Source of the DNA: an uncultured bacterium | GTDB taxonomy: Bacteria; Vulcanimicrobiota; CADAWZ01 | Assembly (NCBI GenBank): GCA_902791745.1 | Contig: CADAWZ010000005.1 | Coordinates: 1 to 34,364, forward strand | Direction: 5' to 3' | DNA length: 34,364 nt | Shown: positions 7,421 to 17,034 of the stretch, in pieces | How positions within the stretch are numbered: the first letter of the stretch is position 1 | How the letters are laid out: each line of letters begins with the position of its first letter | Made by a program: the position numbers and the translations under genes | The notes under the pieces: generated by a model | Database searches by the model: none | Seen by the model: the letters and a program-made list of their open reading frames with translations, nothing else | What the model was told of the DNA's origin: nothing

Positions 7421-7615
7421 TTCAAAAAAATAAAAAAATAATTATGTAAAAGAAGGATATATAAAAAAGAAATAGAATTTTCATGAGACATAATGTAAAA
7501 CGACAAAAAAACTTTAAAAAAAAATTCTATAAAAAAAAGGATATATAAATATTTCATAGAATTGTATTAAGTCGTAAAGTAAAAAAACAAAAAATTAAAC
7601 GGATTTTTAAAAGTG
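7421..7615. other. A-rich intergenic stretch with degenerate tandem repeat
   Basis: No gene seen. The 13-mer AAGGATATATAAA occurs at 7453-7465 and again at 7537-7549, 84 nt apart, with further weaker similarity after each copy (ATAGAATT, GTAAA). A 10-bp inverted repeat ATAGAATTTT / AAAATTCTAT (7472-7481 with 7521-7530) lies between. The promoter of the first porin should lie near the end of this stretch, but no clear -35/-10 pair is visible. Confidence 0.5.
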
Positions 7616-7785
7616 TTCAAGAAGTCGGAACAATACTCTCCGACTCATTACAATGGCTGACAATATAAAAAGAGATAAAATCTTGGAAAAGAAAACACGG
7701 TCACTTTTCCGAAAAAAGATAAGTCTTTGGAATAAACAAAAACAGCCAACACTTATTAACTTATTTTTTCGGAGGTTAAATCATT
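7616..7785 (+). promoter_or_regulatory. Structured 5' leader of porin 1, conserved in porin 2
   Basis: About 170 nt matching 14382-14553 upstream of the second porin. Hairpin A pairs GTCGGA (7624-7629) with TCCGAC (7639-7644). Hairpin B pairs ATCTT+GGAAAAG (7680-7691) with CTTTTCC (7704-7710) and AAGAT (7716-7720), loop AAAACACGGTCA. CCGAAAAAA (7709-7717), in the 3' arm of B, is perfectly complementary to TTTTTTCGG (7764-7772), which runs into the Shine-Dalgarno GGAGG (7771-7775), so an alternative fold could mask the ribosome site. Inferred role: post-transcriptional control of porin synthesis. Confidence 0.65.
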
Positions 7786-10332
7786 ATGAAGAAACTTTCA
7801 GTTCTTCTCGCAGGTCTTGCAGTTTGCTGTTTCGCAGCTCCTGCATTCGCTGCACCAGTTTTTCCAGATGTTCCAGAAGAGCATTGGGCAAGAGATGCTG
7901 TTGCTAATTTAGCAGCAAGCGGTTTAGTTGAAGGATATCCAGACGGCACATTCAAAGGTAACAGAGCTGCAACTCGTTACGAAATGGCTATGGTCATTGC
8001 AAGATTTCTTGCAAAGAACGATCAAGAACATGCAACATTTGCAACAAAGGCTGATCTTGAAGAGCTCAGAAGACTCGTAAATCAGCTCAAATCAGAACTC
8101 GATGCACTTGGCGTAAGAGTAACAAACCTTGAAGATTCAGTTGCAAGCCTCGATAAGAGAGTAACTGAACTTGAAAGAATCACTTTCTATGGTGAATTAG
8201 ATGCTATATTCACAACACAAGGCGTAAAGAGCAATGATACTTGGAAAACATTCAATGGCTTTGGTTGGGCAGATGGTGACTATGATGTACCATTCAACAC
8301 AACACCTCAATCATATACAGGTTCTGTAACAGGTGCTAATGCATTATTTGGTGCATATGGTGTTGGTCCTACAAATGTAGACGCTTATGGAAATTTACAA
8401 GCTAATGATGGAATTCCAGTTATCAACTACAAAAACGGCAGACCTCTTACAAGTGGTACAGGCGTTTCAGCAGTTGCAAAACTCGGAATCAATGCAAAAG
8501 TAAGTGATGATGTAGATGCAGGTCTCGAACTCGCAGCATACACAGCAGTTGGCGATCCACTCGTAAATTCATTCTATGGCGTACAACAGCCATATATGTC
8601 AAATGTATTTGCTGGACAAGGCAACTATATAAGAACAACTGGTGTTGGCAATGCAAGTGATATGTTCACAGCTGTAACACTTGACAATTTCTGGGTAAAA
8701 CATAAACCATCAGGAATCAAGCTCACAGTTGGTTCATTTGGCGAAATGAATATGGATTCTATCCTCTTTGCAGGACAGCCAAATCCAAATGTAAATGGTT
8801 CAGCTTATATTCCAAACTATGGTTTCAAAGTAAATGGAACAGCTGAATTCCTTTCAGATATGGATTGGGAAATCTTCTACACATCTCTTCCAGATGCAAA
8901 CTTAGACCAAGGTGATCCACGTCGTGTAGGTTTAACATACAATGGTGATGGTTATAACACATATGCTTACGGTTTAGACCTCGGTTGGAGATTCAAAGGT
9001 GGAAACTTCAAGATTGGTTACCTCAGAGCTATGAATGATGGAACCAACTATGGAACAAACTATGGTCTCAATGCACTTTATCCTCAGATTGGTAGCAGCC
9101 TTAGTTATGGAATAAGTCAAAATCTTATTAGCTGGGGAACTCCAGTAGAATACTTACCATTAGGAATGGGCTTCATACCAAATAATAATCATATAGCACC
9201 AGTTCAGGTACTAAACAACACTTCAATATTTGGTGAACAATCAACAACAAACTGGTCAGCACACTTTGACTACACTTGGGAAGATAGCAAAATTAAACCA
9301 AGATTCTTTGTTGAATATGCACATTCAGATTACAAACCAACACACGAATCAGATTACAGCGTAAGTGGTGGTGCTCTCAGAGCTGGTCTTGGTGCAACAT
9401 TCTTTAATGATTCATTTGATGTTGACATTCAGTACAAATCAATAGAACCAGAATATGATCCAATGATCCTTCGCTACCCTGTAAATGTAAATCCATTGTC
9501 ATTTCCAGCTTTCTCACACTTCCCAGGTATGTATCAGCTTCATGACACAGAGATTTATACAAACAACAGACAAGGTTGGGACTTCAAGCTCACATATAGA
9601 TTCAAAGATGACAGAGGTAAGATTTGGGCATCTTATCAAACATATGAGCAAGTTGATGCAAGCTTAGTTAAAAACTTTGATGGTTATTATGACCCAGGAT
9701 TCATTGATGCATTCTTCACACCACTTGCTGGTGCATATACAAATATCACAGGCACAGGACTTGGCGGATACCTCGATGAAAACAAAGGTAAAGTAAACAA
9801 ATTTGATATCGGTGTTGATTACAAATTTGAAAACAACCTTGGTCTTGAACTTGAATACTACAAACAAAACTTCAAGAGAGATACAGACCTCAGAGTCAAC
9901 CAGCCATATTGGACAATGGTTACAGGTGTAGGTACATTAGGAGCAGAAGCTGCTGTAAACTATGTTGACCTCGACGTAACAGGTTTCCACATTGGAATTG
10001 CATATCCATTCAATGAGAAATTCACTGGTAAAATTGGATATGATTACACAGCTCTCAAAGGTCACTATGATCCAGCTGGTTTAACAGCAAATTATGCAGT
10101 TCAAACAGCATCACATGACTATACAAACATAGATACAAAGCAGAGCGTTCCATATATCGGCTTCGATTACAAGCTCAGCAAGAACACAGAATGGGGTCTT
10201 AACCTCCAGTTCTTCAACACAACAGACAATGCTGGTCTCTATGCTCCAGTTCCAGCAGTTGGCGACAGAGTATACCATTCAAGCGATTGGAGCGGTACAC
10301 AGCTCACAACAGAATTCAAAGTTAAATTCTAA
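7786..10332 (+). CDS. SLH-domain outer-membrane porin 1
   Basis: 848 aa. Signal peptide ends at AAPAFA (residue ~22). One SLH domain spans about residues 25-75 (FPDVPEEHWARDAV ... EGYPDGTF ... RYEMAMVIARF); this domain typically binds the wall polymer. A heptad coiled coil follows (about 85-135, KADLEELRRLVNQL ... VASLDKRVTELERI), then a beta-barrel rich in alternating aromatic strands ending in the terminal Phe (TTEFKVKF) needed for barrel insertion. The architecture matches SLH porins that tie the outer membrane to peptidoglycan and let small solutes pass. GGAGG lies 10 nt before the ATG. Transcript ends at a strong terminator (10416-10450). A paralog lies at 14554-17034. Confidence 0.92.
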   Translation: MKKLSVLLAGLAVCCFAAPAFAAPVFPDVPEEHWARDAVANLAASGLVEGYPDGTFKGNRAATRYEMAMVIARFLAKNDQEHATFATKADLEELRRLVNQLKSELDALGVRVTNLEDSVASLDKRVTELERITFYGELDAIFTTQGVKSNDTWKTFNGFGWADGDYDVPFNTTPQSYTGSVTGANALFGAYGVGPTNVDAYGNLQANDGIPVINYKNGRPLTSGTGVSAVAKLGINAKVSDDVDAGLELAAYTAVGDPLVNSFYGVQQPYMSNVFAGQGNYIRTTGVGNASDMFTAVTLDNFWVKHKPSGIKLTVGSFGEMNMDSILFAGQPNPNVNGSAYIPNYGFKVNGTAEFLSDMDWEIFYTSLPDANLDQGDPRRVGLTYNGDGYNTYAYGLDLGWRFKGGNFKIGYLRAMNDGTNYGTNYGLNALYPQIGSSLSYGISQNLISWGTPVEYLPLGMGFIPNNNHIAPVQVLNNTSIFGEQSTTNWSAHFDYTWEDSKIKPRFFVEYAHSDYKPTHESDYSVSGGALRAGLGATFFNDSFDVDIQYKSIEPEYDPMILRYPVNVNPLSFPAFSHFPGMYQLHDTEIYTNNRQGWDFKLTYRFKDDRGKIWASYQTYEQVDASLVKNFDGYYDPGFIDAFFTPLAGAYTNITGTGLGGYLDENKGKVNKFDIGVDYKFENNLGLELEYYKQNFKRDTDLRVNQPYWTMVTGVGTLGAEAAVNYVDLDVTGFHIGIAYPFNEKFTGKIGYDYTALKGHYDPAGLTANYAVQTASHDYTNIDTKQSVPYIGFDYKLSKNTEWGLNLQFFNTTDNAGLYAPVPAVGDRVYHSSDWSGTQLTTEFKVKF

Positions 10333-10577: not shown

Positions 10578-11471
10578 ATGTATATGACAGTGAGAGAAGC
10601 ATCCGCAAAATGGGGCATTTCGGATAGAAGAATCAGAGTGCTTTGTTCCGAAGGCAAGATTATAGGTGCACATCAGGAAGGCAGAAGCTGGAAGATACCG
10701 ATCGATGCAGAAAAGCCAGCCGACGGAAGGTTCAAATTGAAGGAAAGCATCTTCGTTCAGATCGACCATAAAAAGGTAGAGTTAGATGAAAGAAGACCAT
10801 TGACGGAAGGTGAAGTAGAACGACTTAATGAGGAGTTCACAGTCGAGTATACCTATAACTCCAATGCCATAGAGGGCAATACACTGACACTCCGCGAAAC
10901 CGATCTTGTCCTTAGAGGACTGACGATAGACCAGCGACCTCTGAAGGATCATATGGAGGCCGTCGGTCACAAGGAAGCGTTCAATTATGTGCGAGAACTT
11001 GTCAAAGAAAATGCGACGCTGACGGAAAGCATTATCAAACAGATTCATTTTCTTGTCCTTGCAGATAAAAAGGATGACCGTGGCGTCTATAGAAGAATTC
11101 CCGTCCATATAATGGGGGCTCACCACGAACCCGTGCAACCATATCTAATAGAGCCGAAAATGGAGCAACTTTTGCTCGATTATGCCACAAGCGAGGATCA
11201 CATTGTGACAAAGCTGGCCCGATTCCATATTGATTTTGAGGGCATCCATCCCTTTATCGACGGCAATGGAAGGACTGGCAGACTGCTTGTGAATCTGGAG
11301 CTTATGAAAGCGGGTTATCCGCCCATCGATATCAAGTTCACAGACAGGGTTGCTTATTACAATGCGTTTGATGCCTATCATGTCAAACATGATCTTTCCG
11401 CTATGGAATATCTATTTGCTGGGTACATCAACGCAAGGCTTGATACCTATTTGAAAATTCTAAAGGAATGA
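10578..11471 (+). CDS. Fic-family protein with N-terminal HTH
   Basis: 297 aa. Residues 3-45 form an excisionase/MerR-like helix-turn-helix (MTVREASAKWGISDRRIRVL ... EGRSWKIP). The Fic core holds the full motif HPFIDGNGRTGRLL, with catalytic His and phosphate-anchoring residues, predicting transfer of AMP (or another nucleotide moiety) from a nucleotide to a protein hydroxyl. An inhibitory helix motif SNAIEGN lies N-terminal of the core, the class II arrangement in which its Glu blocks productive ATP binding. GGAGGTG precedes the ATG. The HTH and the upstream repeats suggest it represses its own gene. The reading frame is clearly richer in G+C than neighbouring genes and uses codons such as CGC and GCG that are rare nearby, so recent transfer is likely. 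Target protein unknown. Confidence 0.9.
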   Translation: MYMTVREASAKWGISDRRIRVLCSEGKIIGAHQEGRSWKIPIDAEKPADGRFKLKESIFVQIDHKKVELDERRPLTEGEVERLNEEFTVEYTYNSNAIEGNTLTLRETDLVLRGLTIDQRPLKDHMEAVGHKEAFNYVRELVKENATLTESIIKQIHFLVLADKKDDRGVYRRIPVHIMGAHHEPVQPYLIEPKMEQLLLDYATSEDHIVTKLARFHIDFEGIHPFIDGNGRTGRLLVNLELMKAGYPPIDIKFTDRVAYYNAFDAYHVKHDLSAMEYLFAGYINARLDTYLKILKE

Positions 11472-14381: not shown

Positions 14382-14553
14382 ATTCAAGAAGTCGGAATAA
14401 TACTTTTCGATTTATTACAATGGCTAACAAAATAAACAGAATTAAATCTTTGGAAAAGAAAACACGGTCACTTTTCCGAAAAAAGATAAATATTTCTGCA
14501 CAAAACAAAAAAGCCAATATTTATTAAGTTATATTTTCGGAGGTCAAAAAATA
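14382..14553 (+). promoter_or_regulatory. Structured 5' leader of porin 2
   Basis: Counterpart of 7616-7785. Hairpin A: GTCGGA (14391-14396) with TTCGAT (14406-14411); relative to porin 1 two C-to-T changes turn G-C pairs into G-U, keeping the stem. Hairpin B: ATCTT, one bulged T, GGAAAAG (14446-14458) with CTTTTCC (14471-14477) and AAGAT (14483-14487), identical loop AAAACACGGTCA. The alternative pairing to the ribosome site is CCGAAAA with TTTTCGG (14534-14540), overlapping GGAGG (14539-14543). The remaining gap 14269-14381 shows only AT-rich sequence with no clear promoter. Confidence 0.65.
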
Positions 14554-17034
14554 ATGAAGAAACTTTCAGTTCTTCTTGCAGGTCTTGCAGTTTGTTGTTT
14601 TGCATCTCCAGCATTTGCTGCACCTGTTTTTCCAGATGTGCCTGAAGAACATTGGGCAAGAGATGCTGTTGCTAACTTAGCAGCAAGTGGTTTAGTTGAA
14701 GGCTATCCAGATGGAACATTCAAAGGCAATAGAGCTGCAACTCGTTACGAAATGGCTATGGTCATTGCAAGATTTCTTGCAATGAACGATCAAGAACATG
14801 CAACATTTGCAACAAAAGCTGATCTTGAAGAACTCAGAAGACTCGTAAATCAGCTCAAATCAGAACTCGATGCACTCGGGGTAAGAGTAACTAATCTTGA
14901 AGATTCAGTTGCAAGCCTCGACAAAAGAGTAACTGAACTTGAAAGAATCACTTTCTATGGTGAATTAGATACTATATTCACAACACAAGGTTTCAAAAGT
15001 GATCAAAAATGGAGAGTATTTAATGGCTATGGTTGGTGTGAACAAGGTGCAAATATACCTGAAAAAATCACAGGTGCAATATCAGGTGCTAATGCACATC
15101 CTGCTATAAACGGATATATGCCAGTTATTGATTACAAAAATGGCAGACCTTTGACAAGTGGCACAGGTGTTTCAGCCATTGCAACACTCGGTATCAACGC
15201 AAAAGTAAGTGATGATGTAGATGCAGGTCTTGAACTTGAAGCATATACAGCTATCGGTGATCCAATAGTGAACGCTTTCTATGGTGTATCACACCCACAT
15301 ACTTTTATGGGATTATCTAACTATGCAGAAACAAGAGAAGTAGGAAATTTTGAAAATGTTTGTACAGAGGCCAAACTTGAAAACTTTTGGGTAAAACATA
15401 AACCATCAGGCATCAAATTAACTGTTGGCGAATTCCATGAAATGAATATGGACTCTATTCTATTTTCAGGTATCCCAAATCCAAATGTGAACGGAGAAAG
15501 TCATCTCAATAATTTAGGATTCAAAGTAACTGGAACAGCAAACTTTCTTTCAGATATGGATTGGGAAGTCTTCTTTACATCACTACCAGATTCAGATTTA
15601 ACAGGTTTAGAAACTGGAGACATAGTAACTAGACGCGTATCCCCTACAAGTGATGGCGGTTACAACACTTATGCCTATGGTTTAGACCTCGGTTGGAGAT
15701 TCAAAGGTGGAAACTTTAAGCTCGGTTATCTTAGAGCTATGAACGATGGCAATAATTATACAGGTTCTAATACCAGTGCTGGAATAACACAAAGCGGACT
15801 CCAGTGGGGTTCTCCATTTGAGTATATCAATGGCTATAACACACATTTAGCTCCAGTATTCAATACAGAAGATGGAATATCAATCTTTGGCGAGCAGTCA
15901 ACAACAAATTGGTCAGCACACTTTGACTACACTTGGGAAGACAGCAAAATTAAGCCAAGATTCTTCGCAGAATATGCACATTCAGATTACAAACCAACAC
16001 ACGAATCAGATTACAGCGTAAGCGGTAGTGCTCTCAGAGCTGGTCTCGGTGCAACATTTTTTGATGATGCACTTGATGTTGACATTCAGTACAAATCAAT
16101 AGAGCCAACATACGATCCAATGATACTTCGCTACCCAATAGCTGTCAATTCAATGTGGAGACTTCCAAACTTCTCTTACTTCCCAGGCATGTATCAATTA
16201 CATGATAGCGAAATATATACAAATAATAGACAAGGTTGGGATTTCAAGCTCACATATAGATTCAAAGATGACAGAGGCAAAATTTGGGCTTCATACCAGA
16301 CATATCAGCAGGTTGAAACAGGACTCTGTAAGACTGCTGACAACAACTTGAATTACTACTATAAACCAGGATTTATTGATGCATTCTTTAGTCCTTGTGT
16401 AGGTAGTAATGTTCCAGTCTATGATTTGGCAGGAAATGTTGTTGGTATAAATACTTATGATGATCACAAAGGCAAAACAAGCAAATTTGACATCGGTGTA
16501 GATTACAAATTTAAAAATGACCTCGGTCTCGAACTCAATTACTATAAACAGAACTTCAAGAGAGATACAGACCTCAGAATCAACCAACTCTACTTCATAA
16601 ACACTGGTTACGCAGGTTACACACCAGGTTTATATGATTTCGGTACATCAGCTGCACAGAATTATGTTGATCTCGATGTAAGCGGATTCCATGTTGGTGT
16701 ATCATATCCATTTAACGAGAAATTTACAGGAAAAGTTGGATTTGATTATACATCTATTAAAGGTCATTATGATCCAAACATGCTACATTACAACTATGCT
16801 ATACAAAGAAATTCCTATGACTATACAAATATAGACACCAAACAAAGTGTTCCATATATTGGATTCGATTATAAGCTCAGCAAAAATACAGAATGGAGCT
16901 GTAATTTCAAATATTTCAGCACTGTTGATGATGCTTTAGTATGTGTCCCATATCCAGCAGTAAGAGATGTATGTGCATACAATATGGACTGGAGCGGAAC
17001 ACAATTTACAACAGAATTTAAAGTAAAATTCTAA
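14554..17034 (+). CDS. SLH-domain outer-membrane porin 2
   Basis: 826 aa, paralog of the 848-aa porin. Signal peptide (SPAFA end), SLH domain and coiled coil differ from porin 1 at only about three positions over the first ~147 residues (Ala to Ser near residue 18, Lys to Met in FLAMNDQ, Ala to Thr in GELDTIF), although synonymous changes are frequent in the DNA. The barrel keeps core strands (for example WVKHKPSGIKLTVG, FDYTWEDSKIKPRFF, NNRQGWDFKLTYRFKDDRGK) but diverges strongly in segments likely to be surface loops, including added Cys residues. It ends in TTEFKVKF. Predicted role: wall-tethered outer-membrane channel of altered loop chemistry. GGAGG 10 nt before the ATG; terminator at 17049-17090. 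Confidence 0.92.
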   Translation: MKKLSVLLAGLAVCCFASPAFAAPVFPDVPEEHWARDAVANLAASGLVEGYPDGTFKGNRAATRYEMAMVIARFLAMNDQEHATFATKADLEELRRLVNQLKSELDALGVRVTNLEDSVASLDKRVTELERITFYGELDTIFTTQGFKSDQKWRVFNGYGWCEQGANIPEKITGAISGANAHPAINGYMPVIDYKNGRPLTSGTGVSAIATLGINAKVSDDVDAGLELEAYTAIGDPIVNAFYGVSHPHTFMGLSNYAETREVGNFENVCTEAKLENFWVKHKPSGIKLTVGEFHEMNMDSILFSGIPNPNVNGESHLNNLGFKVTGTANFLSDMDWEVFFTSLPDSDLTGLETGDIVTRRVSPTSDGGYNTYAYGLDLGWRFKGGNFKLGYLRAMNDGNNYTGSNTSAGITQSGLQWGSPFEYINGYNTHLAPVFNTEDGISIFGEQSTTNWSAHFDYTWEDSKIKPRFFAEYAHSDYKPTHESDYSVSGSALRAGLGATFFDDALDVDIQYKSIEPTYDPMILRYPIAVNSMWRLPNFSYFPGMYQLHDSEIYTNNRQGWDFKLTYRFKDDRGKIWASYQTYQQVETGLCKTADNNLNYYYKPGFIDAFFSPCVGSNVPVYDLAGNVVGINTYDDHKGKTSKFDIGVDYKFKNDLGLELNYYKQNFKRDTDLRINQLYFINTGYAGYTPGLYDFGTSAAQNYVDLDVSGFHVGVSYPFNEKFTGKVGFDYTSIKGHYDPNMLHYNYAIQRNSYDYTNIDTKQSVPYIGFDYKLSKNTEWSCNFKYFSTVDDALVCVPYPAVRDVCAYNMDWSGTQFTTEFKVKF

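What the first reader, a model, noticed from the sequence alone, without database searches (positions are those of the whole stretch)
7616..7785. Conserved porin leader with mutually exclusive folds reaching the Shine-Dalgarno
Seen: the 170-nt leader is shared with the second porin (14382-14553). Hairpin A is preserved through two C-to-T changes that become G-U pairs. Hairpin B and its loop AAAACACGGTCA are identical. The 3' arm of B (CCGAAAAAA) can instead pair 9 bp with TTTTTTCGG at the ribosome site; in porin 2 the same alternative is 7 bp. The identity covers 39 nt without a single silent change although the sequence could be read as codons, pointing to RNA-level constraint. Inference: a riboswitch-like or sRNA-controlled translational switch common to both porins. 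I recognise no known RNA family.
Basis: partly seen in the sequence, partly recalled or inferred. Interest (0 to 1): 0.75.

Follow-up and report, generated by a model that had tools for sequence, protein, structure and literature searches.

The report
Conserved RNA switch before outer-membrane porins
The start of both porin messages carries a small folded RNA whose loop is nearly the same in front of the same kind of porin in several bacterial phyla, and which can probably flip to hide or expose the site where ribosomes begin.

Summary
Hairpin B (7685-7710) is the divergent, AT-rich form of an RNA element found before OmpM (SLH domain plus barrel) porins across Ca. Eremiobacterota, Negativicutes, Atribacterota and other diderm lineages. 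Core: GAG-[RAAACANGGNNA]-CUC, 55-115 nt before the start codon. It occurs in 59 of 146 porin leaders against 0.76 expected from shuffles. The pattern is in 129 of 151 Negativicutes genomes (reversed pattern: 5), and 47 of 57 genome-wide matches elsewhere precede an OmpM gene. A model built without any Eremiobacterota ranks the two window leaders first in the whole 2.29-Mb genome. The stem covaries and crowns a longer helix. The strand 3' of the loop pairs with the Shine-Dalgarno region more than swapped or shuffled controls. In the window the two folds are predicted isoenergetic (-33.4 kcal/mol each). Best reading: a bistable translational switch with the conserved loop as sensor. The trigger is unknown. 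It is not in Rfam 15. It probably overlaps the unverified 2019 'SLH motif' riboswitch candidate, whose consensus I could not read. Hairpin A is local to one genus. An sRNA trigger is unlikely.

The parts
7685..7710 (+). Conserved hairpin P2 (hairpin B), stem 7685-7691/7704-7710, before porin 1
   Evidence: 22/22 identical core in another genus; model R3, built without any Eremiobacterota, ranks 7682-7713 first in the whole genome
7692..7703 (+). Conserved 12-nt apical loop AAAACACGGTCA (class consensus RAAACANGGNNA), proposed sensor
   Evidence: 57 cross-phylum sequences: A13, A14, C15 invariant, GG 55-56/57, last A 55/57
7680..7684 (+). 5' strand of outer helix P1 (ATCTT), pairs with 7716-7720
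   Evidence: Constrained and MFE folds; own flanks pair better than swapped flanks in 81 leaders
7716..7720 (+). 3' strand of outer helix P1 (AAGAT)
7706..7724 (+). Anti-Shine-Dalgarno segment TTTCCGAAAAAAGATAAGT, overlapping the 3' strands of P2 and P1
   Evidence: 17-bp alternative duplex with 7759-7775, -15.6 kcal/mol; class-wide test
7759..7775 (+). Alternative partner ACTTATTTTTTCGGAGG, containing the Shine-Dalgarno CGGAGG 7770-7775
   Evidence: isoenergetic fold without P2
7623..7645 (+). Hairpin A, accessory hairpin restricted to this genus
   Evidence: present in 4 genus copies, with two G-U replacements in porin 2; absent in G002
7786..10332 (+). Porin 1, OmpM type: signal peptide, SLH domain, coiled linker, barrel (848 aa)
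   Evidence: PF00395 E=1.1e-12
14452..14477 (+). Same hairpin P2 before porin 2 (loop 14459-14470)
   Evidence: identical to 7685-7710; R3 second-best in the genome
14472..14483 (+). Anti-Shine-Dalgarno segment of leader 2 (TTTTCCGAAAAA)
   Evidence: pairs with 14533-14544, -10.6 kcal/mol
14533..14544 (+). Alternative partner with SD of porin 2 (ATTTTCGGAGGT)
14554..17034 (+). Porin 2, OmpM type (826 aa)
   Evidence: PF00395 E=1.3e-12

Best explanation
Both leaders carry a cis-regulatory RNA that sets translation of the OmpM porin. A constant 12-nt loop (RAAACANGGNNA) on a GAG/CUC hairpin (P2) tops a variable outer helix (P1). The 3' strand of P2/P1 doubles as an anti-Shine-Dalgarno. With P1/P2 formed the ribosome site is free (on); when P2/P1 opens or fails to form, the same strand pairs with the SD (off). 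Something binding the loop, a small molecule or an RNA-binding protein reporting envelope or porin status, would shift the balance. Shown: the element, its cross-phylum conservation, stem covariation, its place before OmpM genes, the class-wide excess of SD pairing, and predicted bistability. Inferred: that the two folds form in the cell, the on/off assignment, and the existence and nature of the binder.
For: Element: 59/146 porin leaders against 0.76 (max 4) in shuffles, 0 on the reverse strand. Covariation: 0/500 shuffles reach the score in Eremiobacterota or across phyla; pair 8-25 is GC 35, AU 7, GU 2, never broken. Independence: R1 (Eremiobacterota only) gives 12 hits in other phyla, all on the coding strand and essentially all in the leader position of an OmpM-type gene; R3 (no Eremiobacterota) ranks the window's two leaders first in the genome. 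Gene context: 47 of 57 unique matches in 33 genomes precede OmpM, 2 precede other outer-membrane-like proteins; 129/151 Negativicutes genomes, control 5. Outer helix: -22.2 against -13.8 kcal/mol for swapped flanks, p=9e-25. SD pairing: -12.7 against -10.5 swapped (p=4e-5), -10.9 shuffled (p=7e-4), -8.5 for the 5' strand (p=2e-8). Bistable: -33.4/-33.4 (porin 1), -36.4/-36.0 (G002). No terminator in the leader, which favours translation over transcription.
Against: No experiment. Porin 2 and two groups of Eremiobacterota (f12, part of f13) show weaker or no SD pairing, and porin 2 strongly favours the P2 fold. SD sequences are purine-rich, so part of the pairing is cheap; the effect against swapped controls is about 2 kcal/mol. 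Unconstrained folds do not all show the proposed P1. About 60% of leaders did not match my strict hairpin rule, many of them second porins of Eremiobacterota. Relatedness inflates some p-values.
Confidence: 0.6

Rival explanations
1. The hairpin is a binding site for a dedicated RNA-binding protein (translational repressor or activator, perhaps feedback on OmpM), with no small-molecule sensing.
For: Conserved part is small: a 12-nt loop on a short stem, typical of protein sites; purine-rich AAAC..GG loop.
Against: No candidate protein found. CsrA, the obvious one, needs GGA in the loop; here the base after GG is A, C, T or G and the window has GGT.
Confidence: 0.35
2. A 5' leader hairpin that stabilises an abundant porin mRNA, without switching.
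For: Porin mRNAs are abundant; a 5' stem-loop protects E. coli ompA mRNA (my knowledge).
Against: Does not explain an invariant loop, nor SD pairing of the 3' strand beyond controls.
Confidence: 0.15
3. Target site of a trans-acting small RNA, as for Yfr1 on cyanobacterial porin mRNAs.
For: Cyanobacterial Yfr1 targets two porin mRNAs (PMC6778093).
Against: Loop constant across phyla with a paired, covarying stem; plasmid-borne cyanobacterial and Deinococcota SLH porins lack the hairpin; no sRNA search was made.
Confidence: 0.07
4. Conserved leader peptide read through the hairpin.
For: The stretch can be read as codons in three of the four genus copies (KKTRSLF or KKTRRLF).
Against: A one-base difference shifts the frame in G001 porin 2 and the stretch is out of the upstream frame in G002; loop variation shows no codon period.
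Confidence: 0.03

Closest known systems
SLH motif riboswitch candidate (Stav et al. 2019, BMC Microbiol, PMC6429828)
   Same: Same gene association (SLH-domain genes), Negativicutes in both, cis-regulatory leader RNA, no known ligand.
   Different: Described from Thermovirga lienii with 80 examples, about 40% before genes of unknown function, and no mechanism. Its consensus figure and alignment were not readable here, no Synergistota sequence could be fetched, and it is not in Rfam 15, so identity is untested. The element here is more numerous (129 of 151 Negativicutes genomes) and reaches Eremiobacterota and Atribacterota.
Translational riboswitches with SD sequestration (general kind)
   Same: Aptamer-like element upstream of the RBS; alternative pairing with the SD.
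   Different: No ligand known; conserved part is one hairpin loop, not a multi-helix pocket.
CsrA/RsmE binding hairpins
   Same: Short hairpin in the 5' leader with a purine-rich loop close to ANGGA.
   Different: GGA is not required here (GGT, GGC, GGG occur) and the site lies 55-115 nt from the start.
Yfr1/Yfr2 control of cyanobacterial porin mRNAs
   Same: Porins under RNA-level control.
   Different: Trans-acting sRNAs; the hairpin was not found before the cyanobacterial SLH porins tested.

Membership tests
SLH motif (Stav et al. 2019) | Lies upstream of genes with SLH domains | tested here: met
   Window porins carry PF00395; 47 of 57 matches precede OmpM
SLH motif (Stav et al. 2019) | Present in Negativicutes | tested here: met
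   129 of 151 genomes
SLH motif (Stav et al. 2019) | Present in Synergistaceae | not testable with these tools
   No Synergistota genome could be reached
SLH motif (Stav et al. 2019) | Published consensus sequence and structure | not testable with these tools
   Figure and supplement not held; only text and legend read
Any Rfam 15 family | Reaches a family's gathering score | tested here: not met
   No match in window or in 35 related loci apart from tRNAs; no meaningful match at loose E-value
OmpM leader RNA (class defined here) | GAG/CUC-type stem with RAAACANGGNNA loop 55-115 nt before an OmpM start | tested here: met
   Both window leaders; R3 built from other phyla ranks them first in the genome
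OmpM leader RNA (class defined here) | 3' strand complementary to the SD | tested here: met
   -15.6 kcal/mol in leader 1, -10.6 in leader 2
CsrA site | GGA in the hairpin loop | tested here: not met
   Window loop is CGGTC; position after GG varies
Riboswitch | Direct binding of a small ligand | not testable with these tools
   Needs probing in vitro

The most novel reading that the evidence does not exclude
An old regulatory RNA class, shared by several diderm Terrabacteria phyla and tied to their outer-membrane tether OmpM, with a new kind of single-loop sensor of envelope state that flips an anti-SD strand.
Probability: 0.35. Interest if true: 0.85.

Novelty: new variant of a known kind. 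Interest (0 to 1): 0.72.

Why it matters
OmpM joins the outer membrane to the cell wall and is the main porin in many diderm Terrabacteria, a proposed ancestral tether (PMC10628300). How cells set its level is, as far as I could find, undescribed. A small, near-universal leader RNA in Negativicutes that extends to Eremiobacterota and Atribacterota gives a concrete control point, a clear bait for finding the binder, and a mechanism for an orphan riboswitch candidate.

Tried and rejected
Rfam at gathering and loose thresholds: nothing. Hairpin A as part of the conserved device: absent outside the genus. Codon constraint: frame differs between copies. Intrinsic terminator (attenuation): none found. 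CsrA: loop lacks an obligate GGA. Presence before plasmid or phage SLH porins of Cyanobacteria, Deinococcota and one Sporomusa plasmid: 10 loci, none. Virus contigs with the pattern: 99 matches among 2.9 million contigs; their context was not examined and I draw nothing from them. Weaker genome-wide R3 hits in relatives: those inspected in G001, G004, G006 and G008 lie inside or at the start of coding sequence and look like chance. My first anti-SD test used wrong start codons for some leaders and was redone.

Full report
WHAT WAS CHECKED. The leader and its copy are as described. The window comes from a genome of Candidatus Eremiobacterota: the nearest named relatives of the porin lie in records of that phylum. 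Both porins are of the OmpM type, with a signal peptide, one SLH domain (PF00395), a linker and a barrel. The genome has only these two SLH genes.

CONSERVATION NEAR HOME. The sister species G001 has both leaders. G002, in another genus, keeps only the hairpin, 22 of 22 core bases, 76 nt before its porin, in a shorter and otherwise unalignable leader. The pattern with up to three mismatches occurs in 58 phylum genomes only before these five porins, plus two three-mismatch matches of the number expected by chance. In G001 one loop reads ACGGAGA and not ACGGTCA. One copy has a base fewer just before the stem, which shifts any reading frame. The constraint is on RNA.

CONSERVATION FAR AWAY. Leaders of OmpM porins from the rest of the phylum show the same hairpin with other stem letters, for example TGAG-AAAAC-GAGGAAA-CTCA and AGAG-GAAAC-GAGGACA-CTCT. 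On 24 such hairpins no shuffle reaches the observed covariation. A scan of named genomes extended this to Negativicutes, Atribacterota and further lineages; one Veillonellaceae leader has CAGAG-GAAAC-ACGGTCA-CTCTTG, the window's loop except for its first base. Labels of metagenome bins are the submitters' and some are plainly loose. Over 146 leaders, 59 carry the hairpin, against a mean of 0.76 in shuffles and none on the reverse strand or further upstream.

INDEPENDENT TESTS. Model R1, from Eremiobacterota only, finds the element in other phyla in the expected place. Model R3, from other phyla only, ranks the two window leaders as the best two sites of the whole genome, and porin leaders of G001, G002, G007 and G034 as best in theirs. 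A pattern search of 33 whole genomes gave 57 unique matches; 47 lie before OmpM genes, two before outer-membrane-like proteins without SLH (one weakly Porin_4), and the rest look like chance. Veillonella sp. CHU740 has six ompM-type genes in a row, each with its own hairpin (L231). Across 151 Negativicutes genomes 129 have the pattern, against 5 for the reversed pattern.

STRUCTURE. In 57 gapless sequences the consensus is (G/A)AG-RAAACANGGNNA-CU(C/U). The hairpin tops a longer, interrupted helix: own flanks pair at -22.2 kcal/mol on average against -13.8 for swapped flanks, p=9e-25. The outer helix varies in sequence and length.

MECHANISM. The strand 3' of the loop pairs with the SD region better than swapped (p=4e-5) or shuffled (p=7e-4) partners and better than the 5' strand (p=2e-8); in 70 of 75 leaders the best duplex includes the SD core. 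Clear cases: a near-continuous 18-bp duplex in a Dialister leader (L217), CTTCCTCC/GGAGGAAG in L144, CCTCTAAAAT/ATTTTGGAGG in G002. In porin 1 the predicted folds with and without the hairpin have the same energy, -33.4 kcal/mol; in G002 -36.4 and -36.0. Porin 2 favours the hairpin. No terminator is seen. So a translational switch is the best reading. What turns it is unknown.

KNOWN OR NEW. Rfam 15 has no match. Stav et al. 2019 described an SLH motif, a riboswitch candidate with 80 examples from Synergistaceae, Clostridia and Negativicutes, 60% before SLH genes, with a guess at c-di-GMP. Association and taxa agree, so it is probably the same or an overlapping class, but its consensus was not readable and no Synergistota sequence could be had. 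What is new here: the extension to Eremiobacterota, Atribacterota and others; the compact core; the OmpM-specific regulon; and the anti-SD evidence.

LIMITS. Leaders were partly chosen by the motif, so the covariation figures lean towards it; the pattern controls, the swapped controls and the cross-phylum models do not share that bias. Energies are for 37 C and AU-rich RNA is poorly predicted. E-values of short models are rough. Nothing has been tested at the bench.

Noticed in passing
window 7453-7479 and 7537-7563: Two near-copies of AAGGATATATAAAnAnnnnnATAGAATT in tandem upstream of leader 1, also in G001; one similar AAGAAGGATAAA..GAATT in G002. Possibly two promoters; AAGAAGGAT-like sites recur upstream of many porin leaders of the phylum.
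   Followed up: partly
leaders such as L141, L178, L180, L184, L185, L208: In 18 of 76 leaders an AAAGGAGGTGA-like site, complementary to the 16S 3' end, lies 50-140 nt upstream of the hairpin, often followed by TTG or GTG: a short upstream ORF or ribosome standby site.
   Followed up: partly
L231 296-8723: Veillonella sp. CHU740: six ompM-type genes in a row, each with its own copy of the hairpin.
   Followed up: yes
L204 and L208: The hairpin precedes proteins with signal peptides but no SLH domain (L208 weakly Porin_4), so the regulon may be wider than OmpM.
   Followed up: partly
L032, L035, L036, L043: Eremiobacterota groups with a loop variant in which C is followed by a small extra helix (GAAAC TTC TAG GAA G), replacing the NNGGNNA loop.
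   Followed up: no
window 10578-11471: Fic/DOC protein with a helix-turn-helix domain lies between the two porin genes.
   Followed up: no
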